NCBI RefSeq assembly: GCF_017876675.1
Contig: NZ_JAGIOI010000001.1
Span: 1,674,001 to 1,738,000, forward strand
Length of the DNA stretch: 64,000 bases
From: Arthrobacter stackebrandtii
Lineage (GTDB): Bacteria; Actinomycetota; Actinomycetes; Actinomycetales; Micrococcaceae
Direction: 5' to 3'
Under the pieces are notes generated by a model. It did no database searches, had not been told where the DNA came from, and was given only the letters and a program-made list of their open reading frames with translations. The position numbers and the translations under genes were made by a program. Positions 48,344-64,000 of the stretch are shown piece after piece; position 1 is the first letter of the stretch; each line of letters opens with the position of its first letter.

Positions 48344-50944
48344 CTAGTAGCCGCCACCGCTTTCGCTGGCCATGTTGGCGAAGCGCGAGTAGTGGCCCTG
48401 GAAACCAAGCACGATGGTCTTGGTGGGACCGTTACGGTGCTTGGCCACGATCACGTCGGCTTCGCCGGCCCGCGCCGACTCCTTGTCGTAGATGTCTTCG
48501 CGGTGCAGCAGGATGACCATGTCGGCATCCTGCTCGATCGATCCGGATTCACGAAGGTCGGAAACCATGGGCTTCTTGTCCGTGCGCTGTTCGGAACCTC
48601 GGTTCAGCTGAGAGAGGGCCACCACCGGAACTTGCAGTTCCTTGGCGAGCAGCTTCAAGGCACGCGAGAACTCGGAGACTTCCTGCTGTCGTGATTCCAC
48701 ACGCTTGCCGGAGGACATCAGCTGCAGGTAGTCGAGGACCACAAGCTTCAGGTCATGCTGCTGCTTGAGCCTTCGGCACTTGGCGCGGATTTCCATGAGT
48801 GACATGTTGGGGGAATCATCGATGAACAGGGGGGCCTCGTTCATCTTGCCCATCGTCGTGGCGATCTTGGACCACTGGTCGTCCTTGACGGTTCCCTTGC
48901 GGAGGTCCTGCAGACTGATGGTGGCCTCGGCAGAAAGCAGTCGCATGGCGATTTCGTTGCGGCCCATTTCCAGGGAGAAGACAACAGTGGCCATGTTGTG
49001 GTCAATCGCGGCAGACCGGGCCCAGTCAAGTGCGAACGTTGAGTTGTGCGTGGGAATGAAGGACGGGCCCGCCAGATACAGATGACTGCTGTGGGCGATC
49101 TGTATGCATTTCACCGGAACCGAATCAACGGCGCGTACGGACGTGATGAACCGCTGGCTGCGCTTGGGCGTTGCCCTCGCGTCGCGTTCCTTGTGCAGCA
49201 ACTGCTTGCGAGTCAGTCCGAAGACCACATCATCCGTGGCGAAAGTGATCGTGTAGGCGGTGGAAGAAGACTCTGATCGCCCCCGGACGGACTTTTCTGA
49301 CCATCCGGTTCGGTAGCCCAAGCTGTGGATGAGTTCCCGGGTACCCCTCGCCAAGACGAGATTCGTCACAGCAAATTGCACGCAGCCACTGCTGGTCACG
49401 GTTCCATCCGTATCAAGAAGCCCAGCGAGCAGTTCCCGACGCTGGGCTTCGCTGGCCCGAAGATACACGTCGGGAATGTGCTTGTTGTTCAACAGCGAGT
49501 TGGAGCGCAAAAGCGCCTGAAGTGATCCATGGTCGAGACGGCACGGTTCACAGCGAAGTCCACCGCTGCAGGCAATGCCGCAGTCAATGCATGTTGGAGC
49601 AGGAACGGGATCAGTTGTGTAACGTGCCTTTCGGCCACAATTCTGAGAGCAAGTGCGCACCTGACGCTGCTTGCTGGTGAACGCTTCCCCGCACACGACG
49701 CAAATCCCGTCAAAGACAAATGACTCCGGTGGCAGGTGGATGCTCATCGTCAGATCAGTAACAGACTTTAGTTCATAGCCTTCGGCGGAAATCCGCATGA
49801 ACACTTCATCGTCCGCGTTCGTGACACGGGCAGCAGCCGATTCACCGTCACCAAGCCACGCACCTAGCGTGTATGGTCCGATGGGAAGCTCCGCTGTCGG
49901 AAGGTCCAGTGCCCCGGTGTTGTGTATTGAGTGGTTCAGCCGATTGTCCGATACAGCGCACCGCAATGTGTTTGCGATTTGCGTGGTTGTCCGCACTTCC
50001 GCGGTGATTCTCGGATGAGTGGATGTCTGGGCAGATTTCCTCGAAGCCCTGGTGTCGGTGAGCCACTGGTGTTCGGCATCCGCTATGAGGACACTGCCGT
50101 CGTCAAAAGTCACTTCAAAGCAGGGCCGATCCAGCATGATCTCGGTGGCTGCCACAACTGTCGTCGGGGTTCCATCCGCAGCCAGAACCCAGTCGCCCTC
50201 TTTGACCTCTCCCATCGTGGTCCAGCCACTCGGCGTGGGCAGCAAGGTGTCCGTTGCCAGAGCCTTGCCCACGGCCGGACGAGCCGCGATGACGATCATC
50301 TGGCCCGGGTGCAGGCCGTTGGTCAGTTCATCGAACTCGTAGAAACCGGTGGGCACGCCCGTCATGCCCTGGCCCTTGTGGCCCGACGCCTCGATTTCAT
50401 CCACTGTGGATTCCATGACGTCCTTGAGCAGGACGTAGTCCTCAGTGGTGCGCCGCTCGGCCACGGCAAAGATTTCCGCCTGAGCGGCGTTGACCGTGTC
50501 CTCAACCTCGCCGTCCTGGGCGTAGCCCATCTGGACGATCTTCGTGCCAGCAGTGACCAGCCGGCGGAGCACGGCCCGCTCGGCCACGATCTCGGCATAG
50601 AAGCCGGCGTTGGCAGCGGTGGGAACGGACTGGATGAGCTGGTGCAGGTAGGCTGCGCCGCCGGTCTTCGTGATCTCGCCGCGCTTGGTCAGCTCATCGG
50701 CGACGGTGACGGCGTCGGCGGGCTCGCCTCGGCCATAGAGGTCCAGGATGGCCTCATAGATACTCTCGTGGGAGGGCCGGTAGAAGTCATTGCCGCGCAG
50801 GACCTCAACGACGTCCGCGATGGCGTCCTTGGAGAGCATCATGCCGCCGAGCACGCTTTGCTCGGCAACAAGGTCCTGGGGTGGTGTCCGGGCGAAATCC
50901 GGTTCGCGGGATGAAGCTTCTGATTCCCTGGCTGGAGCCGACAT
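48344..50944 (-). CDS. dnaB: Replicative DNA helicase DnaB with an intein in the P-loop
   Basis: 866 residues before splicing, from ATG 50944 (AGAGG upstream). The host protein would be 459 residues. The extein N-terminal part has PPQDLVAEQSVLGGMMLSKDAI; the RecA domain has ARPAVGK then, after the intein, STFALDWARS (Walker A GxxxGKST), LVVLDYLQLMSS (Walker B) and SQLNRGSEQR. It unwinds DNA at the replication fork. The intein must splice out for the Walker A to form, so splicing is needed for helicase activity. Confidence 0.95.
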   Translation of the reverse strand: MSAPARESEASSREPDFARTPPQDLVAEQSVLGGMMLSKDAIADVVEVLRGNDFYRPSHESIYEAILDLYGRGEPADAVTVADELTKRGEITKTGGAAYLHQLIQSVPTAANAGFYAEIVAERAVLRRLVTAGTKIVQMGYAQDGEVEDTVNAAQAEIFAVAERRTTEDYVLLKDVMESTVDEIEASGHKGQGMTGVPTGFYEFDELTNGLHPGQMIVIAARPAVGKALATDTLLPTPSGWTTMGEVKEGDWVLAADGTPTTVVAATEIMLDRPCFEVTFDDGSVLIADAEHQWLTDTRASRKSAQTSTHPRITAEVRTTTQIANTLRCAVSDNRLNHSIHNTGALDLPTAELPIGPYTLGAWLGDGESAAARVTNADDEVFMRISAEGYELKSVTDLTMSIHLPPESFVFDGICVVCGEAFTSKQRQVRTCSQNCGRKARYTTDPVPAPTCIDCGIACSGGLRCEPCRLDHGSLQALLRSNSLLNNKHIPDVYLRASEAQRRELLAGLLDTDGTVTSSGCVQFAVTNLVLARGTRELIHSLGYRTGWSEKSVRGRSESSSTAYTITFATDDVVFGLTRKQLLHKERDARATPKRSQRFITSVRAVDSVPVKCIQIAHSSHLYLAGPSFIPTHNSTFALDWARSAAIDHNMATVVFSLEMGRNEIAMRLLSAEATISLQDLRKGTVKDDQWSKIATTMGKMNEAPLFIDDSPNMSLMEIRAKCRRLKQQHDLKLVVLDYLQLMSSGKRVESRQQEVSEFSRALKLLAKELQVPVVALSQLNRGSEQRTDKKPMVSDLRESGSIEQDADMVILLHREDIYDKESARAGEADVIVAKHRNGPTKTIVLGFQGHYSRFANMASESGGGY
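49043..50263 (-). other. Intein with LAGLIDADG endonuclease, class 3-type
   Basis: 407 residues (Ala228 to Asn634 of the precursor), between GK and S of the Walker A motif. It begins with Ala instead of Cys/Ser, and carries Trp294 (EHQWLT), Cys613 (PVKCIQIA) and Thr632 (FIPTHN), the WCT set of class 3 inteins; Asn634 and +1 Ser635 complete the splice junction. Two LAGLIDADG-like helices (LGAWLGDGE at 360, LLAGLLDTDG at 505) flank two zinc-finger-like cysteine sets (C415/C418/C432/C436 and C452/C455/C465/C468). Confidence 0.9.
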
Positions 50945-51101
50945 TGTGGTGCCTCTTTCTGCCCTGCTGGCCGGGCGCTTCACCGCTGGAAGGCGGCGTA
51001 TACCTATTGCTACTACTCTTTACCAGCTGGTTCCGACAAAGTTGCCGCAGAGGAGCGCTCAACTGCAACGTTAGACGCAGAAACGGCAACCACCAACCCC
51101 G

Positions 51102-54074: not shown

Positions 54075-55532
54075 ATGCGCTCCACCGACCAAGCCGTTGC
54101 GCAGTGGCACGCGCAAAAACAACTGCGGCTCAGCCCGGCATGGAAGCTGCTTCAGGGCGCCCCGTGGGCCCTTGCCTTCCTGCGTGCGGAATTCACGGCA
54201 TCCAGGCAGCGGGTGGGCCTGGAGGAGTTCCACGCCGACCTGGCCGACTTCATGAAGGAGCTCCGCGAGGAGAACCTCAGCCTGAACGACGCCTGGCAGG
54301 CGTCGCACTACGCGGATTCCTGGGTGCGCAGCCAGTTCCTGTCCCGCCCCATGGTGGAGGGCAGGTTCCACTACGAACCCACCGCAGCAACGGCCCGGGT
54401 GCTGGCATTTGTGGACAGCCTGACGGGGCAGCACACCAACCTCAACAGCTCCCGCCTGAGCACGCTGCTCAACAGCATCGAGACCCTCTCGCGGCAAAGC
54501 GACCCCAACCCGGAGTCCCGCATCGCCGCACTTGAGGCCGAAATTGCCGAGCGCCAGGGCGAGATTGCCGCCCTGCGGAGCGGCGCCAGCCCGGCCATCC
54601 TCTCGGATGATTCCGCCGCAGCTGCGGCCCGCAGCGTGCTGGACCTTGCCGCGGGCCTGCCTGCAGACTTCAAGCGGATGCGCGACGGTGTCGAGGCCAT
54701 GCTGCATTCAATCCGCACGGAAATCATGGAATCCTCGGTGACGAAGGGTGTTGCGGTGGGCCAAGTCCTGGCCGGCGACAAGGCCCTGCGCGGCACGGCC
54801 GAGGGCGAGACCTTCCAGGGCTTCACCGAGTTCCTCAACGATCCCGTCCAGCAGGCCCGCTTCCGACAGTCGGTCAATGAAGTGCTGGAGCGCGACTTCA
54901 CGGACCAGCTGACCTCCGAGGAGCGGGCCAACCTGGCCTCACTGCTGCGGGAGATGCGCCGCCAGGCCGCCGAGGTGCACGCCATTTACGGGCGCCTGTC
55001 GGAGAGCCTGCACGCCTACGTCCAGTCCGCCGAATTCCAGGAATCGGTGCTGCTGCGCAAGGCGATCCACGCCGCCGAACAGGCCGTGGCCACGGCGCCG
55101 CTGGGCGCCCGCACCGGGGTGGTGGAACCGCGGCTGTTCGCCCCCAACTTTGAGACGCTGTCCGGGCTGGGCATCTTCAATCCTGACGACCACGTCCCGC
55201 CGCCCAAGCTGGCCGCACCACCGGCCCTGAGCGACGCCGACATCCACCGCACCCCCGTGACGCCGGCGCCTGACATGCCAACCCTGCGCGCCGCCGTCGA
55301 ACGCGTGCGGGAAACGCGCAACGGCCAGGCCACCCTGGCCGAGGTGTACGCGGGGCTGCCGCATGAACTCCGGCACATCAACACCATTCGCGGGCTTATC
55401 CTGGCCGCGCGCGGCTCCGGAGACAACGTCGACACCGGGCGCAGCGAGACGCTCGAGTTCACCCAAATAGACGGCACCGTGCGCACCGCAACCGTCCCCT
55501 TGTTCACCTTCACAAAGGAACCCATAGCATGA
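54075..55532 (+). CDS. jetA: Wadjet protein JetA (DUF3375, MukF-like kleisin)
   Basis: 485 residues from ATG 54075 (MRSTDQAVAQWHAQK) with GAAAGG upstream; the longer frame upstream is not coding. It has ASRQRVGLEEFHADLADFMKELREE at the N terminus and long helices in the middle, as in DUF3375. It would bridge two JetC dimers in the SMC-like complex that senses and removes small circular plasmids. It overlaps jetB by 4 bp. Confidence 0.87.
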   Translation: MRSTDQAVAQWHAQKQLRLSPAWKLLQGAPWALAFLRAEFTASRQRVGLEEFHADLADFMKELREENLSLNDAWQASHYADSWVRSQFLSRPMVEGRFHYEPTAATARVLAFVDSLTGQHTNLNSSRLSTLLNSIETLSRQSDPNPESRIAALEAEIAERQGEIAALRSGASPAILSDDSAAAAARSVLDLAAGLPADFKRMRDGVEAMLHSIRTEIMESSVTKGVAVGQVLAGDKALRGTAEGETFQGFTEFLNDPVQQARFRQSVNEVLERDFTDQLTSEERANLASLLREMRRQAAEVHAIYGRLSESLHAYVQSAEFQESVLLRKAIHAAEQAVATAPLGARTGVVEPRLFAPNFETLSGLGIFNPDDHVPPPKLAAPPALSDADIHRTPVTPAPDMPTLRAAVERVRETRNGQATLAEVYAGLPHELRHINTIRGLILAARGSGDNVDTGRSETLEFTQIDGTVRTATVPLFTFTKEPIA

Positions 55533-56311
55533 GCAGCACCGAGCGCACACTCTTCCCCGGCGACACCGGTTCCTTCCCGCTGGACATGCGCCAGGCACTG
55601 GTGCGGCTGCTGCGCGGGCCGTACATCGACGGCGCGACCGACCCTGCCCTGTGGACCACCGTCCTGACCCACGCAGTCTCCCTGCAGCAGTACCTCAGCG
55701 AGATATTCCTGCTGCTGGAGATCGACGGCGAACGCAAGATCGCACTGCTCTCGCCTGCCGGGGTGGACGCCGTGCATACCCAGCCGATCGTGGCGCGCAA
55801 GCCCCTGCGCAGGGAGGAGACGCTGCTGGCGCTGCGGCTGCGCGTGCTGCTGGACAGGCACGCCGGCTCGGGCACGGACGTGGGCATTTCCCGCGCCGGC
55901 GCCAGGGAGATCCTCGCCGAACACCGCCAGCCCGGCGCCGTGGACGACAAGCGCCTGGATGAACAAACCGATGCCGCGCTGGCCCGGCTGCTGAACCTGA
56001 AACTGATCCTGCCCACGGAACTGCCGCACGAATACCGGGTCAGCAACGCCCTGGCGCTGGCCCTGCCGTTTGACTCCATCGACCAGATTCCGGCGTACCT
56101 CGCTGCCATCGACGCTGCCACGCAGGATGCCCCGGACGGCCAGGACGAAGCATTTGACCTGGACGGCGGGCCTGAAGTGGAAGTCGAGGTGGACGGAGGG
56201 CTGCACGGGCAGCTTGCGGACGATGCACGCAGCGCAAAGGACAGCGGCACCGCCGAGGACACCGGCCGGGAACGCACCGCGCAGGACACCACGATGCAGG
56301 AGATCTTCTAA
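55529..56311 (+). CDS. jetB: Wadjet protein JetB (DUF4194, MukE-like)
   Basis: 260 residues; LDMRQALVRLLRGPYIDGATDPALWTTVLTHAVSLQQYLSEIFLLLEID is the DUF4194 start, with two winged-helix regions (ETLLALRLRVLLDRH, DAALARLLNLKLI). The C terminus is acidic (about 205-255). It binds JetA. Starts in the jetA stop (ATGA) and ends flush with jetC. Confidence 0.86.
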   Translation: MSSTERTLFPGDTGSFPLDMRQALVRLLRGPYIDGATDPALWTTVLTHAVSLQQYLSEIFLLLEIDGERKIALLSPAGVDAVHTQPIVARKPLRREETLLALRLRVLLDRHAGSGTDVGISRAGAREILAEHRQPGAVDDKRLDEQTDAALARLLNLKLILPTELPHEYRVSNALALALPFDSIDQIPAYLAAIDAATQDAPDGQDEAFDLDGGPEVEVEVDGGLHGQLADDARSAKDSGTAEDTGRERTAQDTTMQEIF

Positions 56312-59300
56312 GTGAGCATTGCAACCACCCTGCCCATCGGCGGGGAACTCAACCCGGGCCAGTTCCGGCTCAGCCAGATCCAGATCATCAACTGGGGCAC
56401 CTTCCACGGCCGGCACAGCATGTATGTGGACCGTGCCGGGACGCTGCTGACAGGCCATCCCGGCGTCGGCAAGTCCACCTTGTTTGACGGCATCCAGCAC
56501 ATTTTCTACGCGGCGCCGCGCCTGAACGAATCCGCCCACGAGGCCTCAAACCGCAAGGACCGCCGCACCACGTTCAGCTACATGCGCGGGCGCAAAATCA
56601 AGACGGCCAGCGGCATTGAGTACCAGCGCCCCAGCGCCACCTGGTCCGCCACCGCACTGGTCTTTGAGGACGGCCTGGGCCGTCACGTCACCATCGCCGC
56701 CCTGTTCGACCTGCCCGCCAACGGGCTGGAGGGCCAGGTGGGCAAGCACTATGTCATCCACGACCGGCCGCTGGACACCGAGGCGCTGGAGAACCACGGC
56801 AGCCGCCGCTTCTCGCCCTCCTCCCTGCATGCCGCCCTGCCCGGTGCCGAGGCGTTCGACGTACACAAGACCTTCGCCGAACGCTTCCGGCGCAGGCTCG
56901 GCATCCACAACGACAAGGCATTCAGCCTGCTGCGCACGCTGCAGAACGGCAAGGGCCTGGACAAGGGCGTCAACCGCTTCTTCCGCTACGAGGTCCTGGA
57001 CAAGCCGGCCACGCTGGCGGCGGCCGCGGCAGCGGTGGAGGACTTCAGCCACTTGAGCGGCATCTACCGCCAGCTGGAGGACGCCCGCGGGCAGCGCGAT
57101 GCCCTGGCGCCCGTGCCGGAACTGCACCAAAAACTCCGGCACCTGGCAGAGAAGCATGAGCGCACGATTGAGTTAAAAAACGTCCAGCTTCCCCTGCTCC
57201 GGCAGCAGTTCCAGGGCGAGCTGCTGGCGTCCCGTGCAGTCGCCCTCGCTGAAGCGCAGGCCCACAAGAAGGCCGACATCACGGCCGCCGGACAGGCCAA
57301 GGATGCCCTCGCCGAAACTGTTTCCGCACTGGCCCGGCAGCACGCCACCCACGGCGGGCAGGCCATCGAGTCCCTCGAAAAGGACATCCGCACAGGCCGG
57401 CGCGAGCTGGCGGAGAGCCAGCGCCTGGAGGCCGCTGCCCGCGACGAACTTGACGCCACCGGGCTCGAGTATGACTGGAGTGCGCAGGGACTGGCCGCTG
57501 CGCGCCTGGCTGCGGCGTCCGGCGTCGAACACCAGCAGGTGGACATGGACGCGGCGCGCACGCTGGAATACCAGGCCGTCGCCGCCAGTGTGAACCTCAA
57601 GGCCCGGGAAAAGGCGCTGCGGGCCGAGATCGCAGCCTACGAGCGCCGCGGCTCCAACATTGACTCGCGCAGTGCCGCCGCCCGGCGCGCCATCTGCGCC
57701 GCGACCGGCCTGGAAGCCGCGGACATGCCGTTTGCCGGCGAGCTGGTGGACATGGGCGCCGGACACGGTGCATGGCGGCCGGCGGCGGAAAAGGTGCTGC
57801 GTTCGCTCGCCACCACCCTGCTGGTTCGGGGTGGCGACATTGCGGCCGTCACCTCGGCCATCAACGCGCTCGACGGCCACGGCAAGCTGCGCTGGATCGA
57901 CCTTGGCGTGCCCGCCAAGCCTGCCAAGGAGGGCCGCAACCAGCTGGTAGGCAAGCTGGATTTCCATGATTCCGAGGCAGGAGCCTGGCTCCGCGGGAAA
58001 ATCGCGGCCGACTTTGCCTTCACCTGCGTTGACGACGACGCCGCCCTGCACGAACAGGCCAAGGCCGTTTCGCTGGCGGGAACCGTGAAGCTGGGGCAGG
58101 CGCTGTTTGAACGAGACACCCGCACCATCAACCCGGGCGACTACCTGCTGGGCTTCAACAACGTGGCGAAGATTGCCGAACTTGAGGACCAGGCCCGGCT
58201 GCTGGCCGACGAGCAGGGGGCCTTGGACGCCGCGGCGGCCGAAAGCAGCCTGGCGAAAGAACAGTCGGTCCGCAGGCTGGCGGCCCTGAAGCGCGTCGCC
58301 GCAGACCCCCGCACTTTTGAGGAGCTGGACTCAGCAGCCCCGGCGGCAGCGCTGGAGGCCTTGCAGGCCACCCTTGAAGCCACCATCGCCGGCAGCACCA
58401 CGCTGGCCCAGCTCCGGGATTCGCTGGCGGAGGCCCAGGGTGAACTCGAGGCCGCCGTCGGGCGCGTGGCAGTGCTGCACCACGACCTGGCCGGAATCGA
58501 GAAGGACCTTGCCGCGGTCCAGGGCGTGTTGGCCGGAGGCAGCCCGGACAAGGCTGCGGACGACTGGGCGCAGGAGGCATTTGCGCCGTTCCTGGAGGCG
58601 GGCGAACCCGCCTCCCTCGACGAGCTCGAAGTCCTGCTGAGCCATGTCGCCGTCGACCTTGGGGAACGGATCGCCACCATCAAGGAACGCCAGTTCCGCA
58701 CCGAAGCCGCGCTGAGTGAGATCTTCAAGGCGTTTGCCCGGCAGTTCGGGCCAACAATGAGCGCCAGCCACGGCACCGGTGCCGAAGCCGCTCCCCACTA
58801 CGAGGAGCTGTACCACCGCATCGTCTCGGACGGGCTGCCGCAGCGCCAGGAGGAATTCAAGGAGTACTTCAACAACCGCTCCTACGAACGATTCTCCGAC
58901 CTCCTGCAGCTGCTGGAAGAAGAACGGCGATCCATCGAGGAACGCATCCTGCCCCTGAACCAGATCCTGGCCGACGTCCCCTTCGAGAAGGGCAGCCGGC
59001 TGCGGCTGGAGGTGAAGACCACCGTTCCCGACGAGGCACGCGCGTTCCGCCAGGACCTCAAGGAGGCCCTCGGAAATGCCTACACCAAGGCAACGGAGGA
59101 AACCATGGCCAGCAGCTACCAGCAGCTGGAACGGCTCGTCACCTCACTGGCGGATCCCGCCATGGCGTCCTGGACCGACACCGTGCTGGACGTCCGCCAG
59201 CATGTCACCATCAGCTGCAACGAGCACCGCCCGAACGGGGAAACCGAGCTCGGCCTCGAACCCGGCACCCTGTCCGGCGGCGAGGGCCAGCGGTTCACGT

Positions 59301-59605
59301 CGTTCATCATGGGCGCCGCCCTGGCCTACCAGCTGGGGATCGATGTCCAGGGCTACAGCACCTACGGCACCGTCATGATCGACGAAGCCTTCATTCAGGC
59401 CAACTCCGAATACGCCGGGGCCGGCATCAACGCGCTGCAGGAATTCGGCTTCCAGCTGCTGCTGGCGGCACCCGAAGACAAGGTGGACCTGTCCCGCCAC
59501 CTGGGTTCAGTCACCGACATCATCAAACATCCGCAGGCCAACGTCTCTGGTTTTGTCTCCACCGGCCAGTCGCCGGCCACCGCAACGGACATCATCCTGC
59601 GGTAA
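56312..59605 (+). CDS. jetC: Wadjet protein JetC (SMC/MukB-like ATPase)
   Basis: 1097 residues from GTG 56312, directly after the jetB stop. Walker A GHPGVGKST (48-56), two long coiled-coil arms (about 260-480 and 610-880) around a hinge near 500, signature LSGGEGQR (from 987) and Walker B VMIDEAF with Asp1024-Glu1025. It is the motor that would extrude plasmid DNA. The usual fourth gene, jetD (TOPRIM nuclease), does not follow. Confidence 0.9.
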   Translation: MSIATTLPIGGELNPGQFRLSQIQIINWGTFHGRHSMYVDRAGTLLTGHPGVGKSTLFDGIQHIFYAAPRLNESAHEASNRKDRRTTFSYMRGRKIKTASGIEYQRPSATWSATALVFEDGLGRHVTIAALFDLPANGLEGQVGKHYVIHDRPLDTEALENHGSRRFSPSSLHAALPGAEAFDVHKTFAERFRRRLGIHNDKAFSLLRTLQNGKGLDKGVNRFFRYEVLDKPATLAAAAAAVEDFSHLSGIYRQLEDARGQRDALAPVPELHQKLRHLAEKHERTIELKNVQLPLLRQQFQGELLASRAVALAEAQAHKKADITAAGQAKDALAETVSALARQHATHGGQAIESLEKDIRTGRRELAESQRLEAAARDELDATGLEYDWSAQGLAAARLAAASGVEHQQVDMDAARTLEYQAVAASVNLKAREKALRAEIAAYERRGSNIDSRSAAARRAICAATGLEAADMPFAGELVDMGAGHGAWRPAAEKVLRSLATTLLVRGGDIAAVTSAINALDGHGKLRWIDLGVPAKPAKEGRNQLVGKLDFHDSEAGAWLRGKIAADFAFTCVDDDAALHEQAKAVSLAGTVKLGQALFERDTRTINPGDYLLGFNNVAKIAELEDQARLLADEQGALDAAAAESSLAKEQSVRRLAALKRVAADPRTFEELDSAAPAAALEALQATLEATIAGSTTLAQLRDSLAEAQGELEAAVGRVAVLHHDLAGIEKDLAAVQGVLAGGSPDKAADDWAQEAFAPFLEAGEPASLDELEVLLSHVAVDLGERIATIKERQFRTEAALSEIFKAFARQFGPTMSASHGTGAEAAPHYEELYHRIVSDGLPQRQEEFKEYFNNRSYERFSDLLQLLEEERRSIEERILPLNQILADVPFEKGSRLRLEVKTTVPDEARAFRQDLKEALGNAYTKATEETMASSYQQLERLVTSLADPAMASWTDTVLDVRQHVTISCNEHRPNGETELGLEPGTLSGGEGQRFTSFIMGAALAYQLGIDVQGYSTYGTVMIDEAFIQANSEYAGAGINALQEFGFQLLLAAPEDKVDLSRHLGSVTDIIKHPQANVSGFVSTGQSPATATDIILR

Positions 59606-62720: not shown

Positions 62721-62839
62721 GTCCGGCGGTGTCCTACTCTCCCACATCCTCTCGAATGCAGTACCATCGGCGCTGTGGGTCTTAGCTTCCGGGTTCGGAA
62801 TGGGACCGGGCGTTTCCCCCACGCTATGACCACCGTAAC
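62721..62839 (-). rRNA. rrf: 5S ribosomal RNA
   Basis: 119 nt. On the minus strand it starts GTTACGGTGGTCATAGCG and ends CACCGCCGGAC; the internal CCGAACCCGGAAGCTAAG loop and the GATGGTACTGC region are diagnostic, and the two ends pair. Sequence is that of Micrococcaceae-type 5S. Confidence 0.95.
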
Positions 62840-63064
62840 TCGTTCCCCGAACCGTGTTTGGTTGGGTGGCTTGTTGGGTGTTCCTTTTGTGAACAACTTG
62901 TTGTTATTTTATTGTACAGGCCCCTGGTGCCGTCCCGTACCGTTGTGGTGGTGGGGGTGGTCACAGGGTTTCTGTGGTGTTGGGTTTCCAAACGGTTTGT
63001 TGTTTGGGAACCACATAGTGAACGCGAGCAGTCTTAGTGTTTATAAGAGTGTGTGTGGTGTAAG
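62840..63064 (-). other. 23S-5S spacer
   Basis: About 225 bp, rather A/T-rich compared with the rest of the window. No tRNA gene. It includes a run (about 62893-62925, TGTACAATAAAATAACAAC on the minus strand) that may be part of a processing stem. Confidence 0.6.

Positions 63065-64000
<936 letters not shown>

What the first reader, a model, noticed from the sequence alone, without database searches (positions are those of the whole stretch)
54075..59605. Wadjet jetABC without the jetD nuclease
jetA, jetB and jetC are intact and coupled (overlaps of 4 and 0 bp), but an unrelated EamA gene follows 51 bp after jetC on the opposite strand, and rpsF precedes jetA. JetD (DUF3322/DUF2220, TOPRIM nuclease) cleaves the extruded plasmid in known Wadjet systems. 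Its absence here means jetD is elsewhere, another nuclease substitutes, or the complex has a different job, such as chromosome handling near the origin like MksBEF.
Basis: partly seen in the sequence, partly recalled or inferred. Interest (0 to 1): 0.7.

Follow-up and report, generated by a model that had tools for sequence, protein, structure and literature searches.

The report
Nuclease-free Wadjet motor in Arthrobacter relatives
Besides a normal plasmid-cutting Wadjet defence system, this soil bacterium carries a second Wadjet-type DNA motor without the cutting enzyme, kept by nearly every relative checked in two genera, which suggests a former defence machine that now looks after the chromosome.

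Summary
Observation confirmed: jetA, jetB and jetC are intact and coupled, with no jetD beside them. The genome is one 4.43-Mb contig. Its only JetD (PF09983) sits in a second, complete jetABCD operon about 450 kb away, whose JetC is 27% identical to the window's.

The window's jetABC belongs to a Micrococcaceae clade ("clade B") with no JetD nearby in 38 of 38 family-sample loci or in 80 of 80 named loci (10 of these end within 1.5 kb downstream). 24 of the 38 genomes have no strong JetD hit anywhere. Clade B is in 23 of 23 genomes of the window's genus and 100 of 101 of a second genus; the other JetC class is in 13 of 23 and 33 of 101. ATPase motifs are intact in 38 of 38, and pN/pS is in the range of the complete operon, so it is not decaying. 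All 38 genomes also carry ScpB.

Best reading: a nuclease-free, MksBEF-like second condensin of Wadjet ancestry. The function is inferred, not shown. New variant of a known kind.

An early result, that JetD presence splits cleanly on the JetC tree, was my sampling artefact: a related clade mixes JetD-plus and JetD-less operons.

The parts
54075..55532 (+). jetA: kleisin-type subunit (DUF3375), 485 aa
   Evidence: Pfam PF11855 E 1.8e-97; PADLOC JetA1 761 bits; solved JetA 8q72_E E 9.4e-21
55529..56311 (+). jetB: KITE-type subunit (DUF4194), 260 aa, overlaps jetA by 4 bp
   Evidence: Pfam PF13835 E 4.8e-25; PADLOC JetB1 264 bits; AlphaFold2 model, mean pLDDT 80.9, best match solved JetB 8as8_C, E 5.7e-10
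56312..59605 (+). jetC: SMC-like ATPase, 1097 aa, abuts jetB
   Evidence: PADLOC JetC1 1078 bits; solved JetC 8dk2_C E 6.7e-64
56453..56479 (+). jetC Walker A, GHPGVGKST (residues 48-56)
   Evidence: Walker A pattern found in 38 of 38 clade-B JetC; residues numbered
59270..59290 (+). jetC ABC signature, LSGGEGQ (residues 987-993)
   Evidence: found as LSGGEGQ/MSGGEGQ/MSGGERQ in 38 of 38 clade-B JetC
59372..59392 (+). jetC Walker B, VMIDEAF (residues 1021-1027)
   Evidence: found as VMIDEAF/VMMDEAF in 38 of 38 clade-B JetC

Best explanation
This is a nuclease-free JetABC complex that works as a second chromosomal condensin beside SMC-ScpAB, as MksBEF does in Pseudomonas. JetC is the ATP-driven SMC motor, JetA the kleisin and JetB the KITE subunit; together they would load on DNA and extrude loops. 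Without JetD, completing or stalling a loop does not cut the DNA, so the complex can act safely on the chromosome (and perhaps on resident large replicons). Shown here: three intact coupled genes; no JetD in or beside the operon across its clade; intact ATPase motifs; purifying selection; near-universal presence in two genera; coexistence with ScpB and, in this genome, with a separate complete jetABCD. Inferred: complex assembly, loop extrusion, action on the chromosome, and that an ancestor had JetD and lost it.
For: No JetD: one PF09983 in the genome, in another operon; a local JetD profile finds JetD in 29 loci but in none of 38 clade-B loci at E <= 10; none in 80 named loci. Core: 23 of 23 genomes and 100 of 101 (the one miss is 68% complete), against 13 of 23 and 33 of 101 for the other JetC class. 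By genus with 2 or more genomes, clade B is all/mixed/none 9/1/16 (shuffled labels: mean 20.2 mixed); strong JetD hits 0/15/11 (shuffled mean 16.4 mixed, P 0.29). Motifs intact 38 of 38. pN/pS of jetC 0.126-0.360 against 0.159-0.248 for the complete operon's jetC in the same six genome pairs. ScpB in 38 of 38. Precedent: P. [quoted passage not shown]
Against: No functional data. Being core within a genus does not exclude defence: a survey reports Wadjet plus RM with Eleos or PD-T4-3 in 73% of Rhodococcus genomes (PMC10482375, passages). Clade-B JetC occurs on two records listed as Arthrobacter plasmids, 754 kb and 1.35 Mb. Origin proximity is not general. In 5 of 100 genomes of the second genus the JetC match is split over reading frames (G525, G529, G532, G552, G594). 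In 2 of 6 genome pairs (G096, G076) jetC has a higher pN/pS than the complete operon's jetC. A related clade loses or gains JetD repeatedly, so absence of JetD alone does not prove a new job. The direction, loss rather than never having had it, rests on an unrooted tree.
Confidence: 0.6

Rival explanations
1. Defence without cutting: JetABC still recognises small circular DNA by total loop extrusion but silences, compacts or missegregates it instead of cleaving it, as Smc5/6 is thought to do with viral episomes.
For: All motor parts are kept and the family is a plasmid sensor; the review describes JetABC as the sensor and JetD as the executor (PMC10586767). The co-resident complete jetABCD would leave room for a division of labour.
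Against: Near-universal, genus-wide retention differs from the patchy JetD operons of the same genomes. A review passage says all four subunits are needed to suppress plasmid transformation in B. subtilis (PMC10586767).
Confidence: 0.17
2. Another nuclease takes JetD's place, for instance the TM0106/RecB-type nuclease fused to an SF1 helicase (P0004) that lies directly upstream of jetA, on the same strand, in some relatives.
For: It is present in 30 of 38 clade-B genomes against 18 of 62 others (Fisher p 1.4e-6, not corrected for kinship).
Against: Missing from 8 of 38 clade-B genomes, among them all 4 of genus g20 and all 3 of g32. In this genome it is about 130 kb away (1860972-1864631). No flanking family is shared by more than 12 of 38 loci. 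Linkage may simply be old synteny.
Confidence: 0.12
3. JetABC borrows JetD in trans from the complete jetABCD operon of the same genome.
For: This genome has such a JetD, intact over 407 aa.
Against: 23 of 38 clade-B genomes have no PF09983 match at E <= 0.001, and the window's JetC is only 27% identical to the JetC next to that JetD.
Confidence: 0.06
4. A recent loss of jetD has left a decaying remnant with no function.
For: Five of 100 second-genus copies are split over frames.
Against: 23 of 23 genus copies and 38 of 38 family copies have no stop inside; motifs intact 38 of 38; pN/pS well below 1 in all six pairs; deep clade spanning 11 genera.
Confidence: 0.02

Closest known systems
Wadjet type I (JetABCD; EptABCD; MksBEFG of Corynebacterium glutamicum)
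   Same: Same three core families (DUF3375, DUF4194, SMC-like ATPase), same gene order A-B-C and coupling; PADLOC calls all three type I.
   Different: The defining nuclease JetD/MksG is absent from the operon, from its neighbourhood in the whole clade, and in 23 of 38 genomes from the genome (E <= 0.001).
MksBEF of Pseudomonas aeruginosa
   Same: Kleisin-KITE-SMC trio without a nuclease, coexisting with SMC-ScpAB; [quoted passage not shown]
   Different: Sequence family: the window's JetB is below the Pfam cut-off for MksE (22.4 against 27 bits) and hits DUF4194 instead. A chromosomal role is shown for MksBEF and only inferred here.
JetABC without JetD listed in Paenarthrobacter lasiusi S21 (PMC11719660, Table 6)
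   Same: A PADLOC table with one 'Wadjet' entry of JetA, JetB, JetC only, beside a complete type I entry, as in this genome.
   Different: Listed there as an antiviral system without remark in the passages I saw. Whether it belongs to clade B was not tested.

Membership tests
Wadjet type I | JetA kleisin (DUF3375) | tested here: met
   PF11855 E 1.8e-97, PADLOC JetA1 761 bits
Wadjet type I | JetB KITE (DUF4194) | tested here: met
   PF13835 E 4.8e-25, PADLOC 264 bits; model matches solved JetB. Plain sequence search against solved JetB is weak, E 0.11
Wadjet type I | JetC SMC-like ATPase with Walker A, signature and Walker B | tested here: met
   PADLOC 1078 bits; motifs in 38 of 38 clade members
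Wadjet type I | JetD nuclease (DUF3322/DUF2220) in the operon | tested here: not met
   No PF09983 in or near the operon; the genome's one match belongs to another operon; two local JetD profiles find none in the clade apart from one 11-bit noise hit
Wadjet type I | Restriction of small circular plasmids | not testable with these tools
   needs transformation and plasmid-stability assays
MksBEF | Three-gene kleisin-KITE-SMC operon without MksG | tested here: met
   38 of 38 loci carry jetA, jetB, jetC and no JetD
MksBEF | Occurs together with SMC-ScpAB or MukBEF | tested here: met
   ScpB (PF04079) in 38 of 38 clade-B genomes of the family sample. SMC and ScpA themselves were not searched
MksBEF | Membership in the MksE sequence family (PF21980) | tested here: not met
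   22.4 bits against a cut-off of 27
MksBEF | Role in chromosome organisation or segregation | not testable with these tools
   needs deletion strains, imaging and Hi-C

The most novel reading that the evidence does not exclude
A plasmid-defence SMC motor was domesticated: after losing its nuclease it became a core, housekeeping condensin of a group of Micrococcaceae genera, while a separate JetABCD paralogue in many of the same cells stayed a patchy defence system.
Probability: 0.5. Interest if true: 0.72.

Novelty: new variant of a known kind. Interest (0 to 1): 0.57.

Why it matters
Whether chromosomal condensins of the Muk/Mks kind descend from plasmid-defence machines is an open question (PMC10586767, section 7). 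Here a nuclease-free and a nuclease-bearing type I complex sit in one genome, so the two can be deleted and compared in the same cell. It also warns annotators: tools that score JetA, JetB and JetC call this complex Wadjet although the defining nuclease is missing, which may inflate Wadjet counts in Actinomycetes.

Tried and rejected
Rejected, JetD split as one or two events: trees of 99 rows and 40 rows showed only 2 changes of the JetD label, with an AU p of 0.042 against one JetD-less clade. That was my sampling: I had fetched only 12 of the JetD-bearing loci of the class search. After fetching 20 more loci, 19 were added to the pool (L241, a partial JetC of 493 aa, was dropped) and a 55-row selection gave 10 changes (shuffled mean 18.3). 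Clade A is mixed: 8 of the added loci with clade-A JetC have JetD (L232-L235, L240, L246, L247, L249), some of them near JetD-less rows. Clade B stayed JetD-less (10 of 10 rows there). The AU result gets no weight.

Rejected, JetB N-terminal motif as a JetD marker: a [F/W]-x-GD-x-[G/S] motif near the JetB N-terminus looked like F without JetD and W with JetD; added loci broke the rule both ways.

Rejected, constant fourth gene: the first clustering output was cut, so it was repeated on flanks only; the most widespread flanking family reaches 12 of 38 clade-B loci, 3 of 18 in clade A and 3 of 13 in clade M.

Weak points: 12 of 99 JetB proteins were not recovered. Named loci are the best 80 of 394 and 10 of them end within 1.5 kb after jetC. 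One hit of 11 bits (E 0.13) to the clade-A JetD profile in L041, and the same genome as L169, was taken as noise. dS is above 1 in many pairs. dnaA could not be measured on the same contig in 2 of 17 genomes, G403 and G085. Genome searches score only the best few candidates per genome (7), so the second JetC class may be undercounted. The JetA alignment was not used.

Full report
What is there. The window holds jetA, jetB and jetC, intact and coupled, and no jetD. The genome is a single contig of 4.43 Mb and the window is its bases 1674001-1738000; the only PF09983 match lies at 2179891-2180418. That JetD is the last gene of a second operon on the minus strand: jetA, jetB, jetC of 1126 aa and jetD of 407 aa, typed JetC1 and JetD1 by PADLOC; its JetD matches the solved MksG of C. 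glutamicum (E 3.7e-30). The two JetC proteins are 27% identical, so the window's operon is an old paralogue, not a fresh copy.

A clade without JetD. In a 100-genome sample of the family, JetC matches fall into two groups: 38 genomes with a close relative (779 bits or more, 43-100% identical), called clade B here, and a second group at 322 bits or less. All 38 clade-B loci carry jetA, jetB and jetC in order. JetD matches lie by the second group: 15 of 38 clade-B genomes have any PF09983 match and 23 have none; counting only matches with E under 1e-40, 14 have one and 24 have none. A JetD profile built here finds JetD in 29 of 99 loci and in none of the clade-B loci at E <= 10. A second profile from the clade-A JetDs adds one noise hit, 11 bits. 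In 80 named loci, the best 80 of 394, no JetD was found; 10 of them end within 1.5 kb after jetC. The named records are Arthrobacter, Pseudarthrobacter, Paeniglutamicibacter, Glutamicibacter, Zhihengliuella, Zafaria, Specibacter, Sinomonas and unclassified Micrococcaceae, plus one labelled Sporosarcina.

A core gene set. Clade-B JetC is in 23 of 23 genomes of the window's genus, all in one open frame, while the other class is in 13 of 23. In a second genus it is in 100 of 101; the one miss is 68% complete, 5 of the 100 are split over frames, and the other class is in 33 of 101. In the family sample, genera with two or more genomes are all/mixed/none 9/1/16 for clade B, where shuffling gives 20.2 mixed on average and never under 13 in 5000 draws; strong JetD matches give 0/15/11, like shuffling (16.4, P 0.29). 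Kinship within genera explains part of such a contrast, but both classes were counted in the same genomes.

Not decaying. Walker A, signature and Walker B are intact in 38 of 38. In six genome pairs pN/pS is 0.126-0.360 for the window's jetC and 0.159-0.248 for the jetC of the complete operon; the window's copy is lower in 3 pairs, equal in 1 (G024) and higher in 2 (G096, G076). dS is often near or over 1, so these ratios are rough.

Place in the genome. dnaA is at 1787043, 57 kb from jetC. Nine genomes of the genus, this one included, have 39-62 kb; seven genomes of other genera have 117-816 kb; the complete operons lie at 307-394 kb in five genomes. So origin proximity is a genus trait. rpsF is directly upstream in 16 of 30 genus clade-B loci, several of which are the same genome twice, and the rRNA stretch of the window's end is found downstream in 22 of 30. 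The window's own 5S rRNA is at 62721-62837 and 23S rRNA at 63055-64000, minus strand.

Partners. All 38 clade-B genomes carry ScpB, so this is a second SMC-type complex. No flanking gene family reaches more than 12 of 38 loci. The most widespread one is a TM0106/RecB-type nuclease fused to an SF1 helicase, co-directional and about 59-155 bp upstream in 9 loci, but 130 kb away here and missing in 8 of 38 clade-B genomes. It is a lead, not a constant partner. Clade-B JetC is also on two records listed as Arthrobacter plasmids of 754 kb and 1.35 Mb, so it is not strictly chromosomal by label.

Phylogeny and a correction. Trees of 99 and 40 JetC suggested that JetD presence changes only twice. Loci with JetD that I had not fetched turned out to lie within clade A; with them a 55-row tree needs 10 changes (shuffled mean 18.3). 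JetD is therefore gained or lost repeatedly in type I operons of Actinomycetes, and clade B (here 10 of 10 rows) and clade M (13 of 13 loci) are lineages in which no JetD was seen. The trees are unrooted and quick, so loss is the likely but unproven direction.

Mechanism. Known JetABCD extrudes DNA loops and cuts when a small circle is fully extruded; JetABC is the sensor and JetD the executor (PMC10586767, passages and section 7). A motor without executor, kept by nearly all relatives beside ScpB, fits the MksBEF pattern: in P. aeruginosa MksBEF and SMC both organise and segregate the chromosome (PMC7485682, outline and introduction). In C. glutamicum, by contrast, MksBEFG with its nuclease acts only on plasmids (PMC7083940, passages; PMC10123090, passages). 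I put 0.6 on a chromosomal, nuclease-free condensin, 0.17 on non-cutting defence, 0.12 on another nuclease, 0.06 on JetD in trans and 0.02 on decay.

Literature. Nine searches of the open library listed no paper whose title or listed abstract start describes a conserved JetD-less type I lineage. One genome paper lists a 'Wadjet' of JetA, JetB, JetC only beside a complete one in Paenarthrobacter lasiusi (PMC11719660, passages), without remark in the passages seen. The key structural papers are not in the library (for one), so prior description elsewhere cannot be excluded.

Noticed in passing
window 48344-50983 (-): The dnaB frame (879 aa) looks interrupted by an intein-like insert within the Walker A region (reading by eye; no search made).
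   Followed up: no
L229:8059-11679, L035, L036, L223, L224 and others; G000:C1:1860972-1864631 (-): A TM0106/RecB-type nuclease fused to an SF1 helicase lies directly upstream of jetA on the same strand in some relatives and about 130 kb away in this genome.
   Followed up: partly
   Followed up: partly
L229 (NZ_CP012477.1) and NZ_AP024648.1: JetC of clade B sits on two records listed as Arthrobacter plasmids of 754 kb and 1.35 Mb; these may be secondary chromosomes or assembly splits.
   Followed up: partly
L232-L235, L240, L246, L247, L249 against L092, L099, L250, L251: In clade A, operons with and without JetD are close on the JetC tree, so JetD seems to be gained or lost repeatedly.
   Followed up: partly
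window 55550-55571 region (jetB N-terminus) and JetB of relatives: A short [F/W]-x-GD-x-[G/S] motif near the JetB N-terminus is strongly conserved with and without JetD, but absent from the JetB of this genome's complete operon; its role is unknown.
   Followed up: partly
L096-L098, L104, L109-L117: Another lineage (clade M, families f10 and f26) has jetABC with no JetD in 13 of 13 loci; one of them (L112) has a partial JetC.
   Followed up: partly
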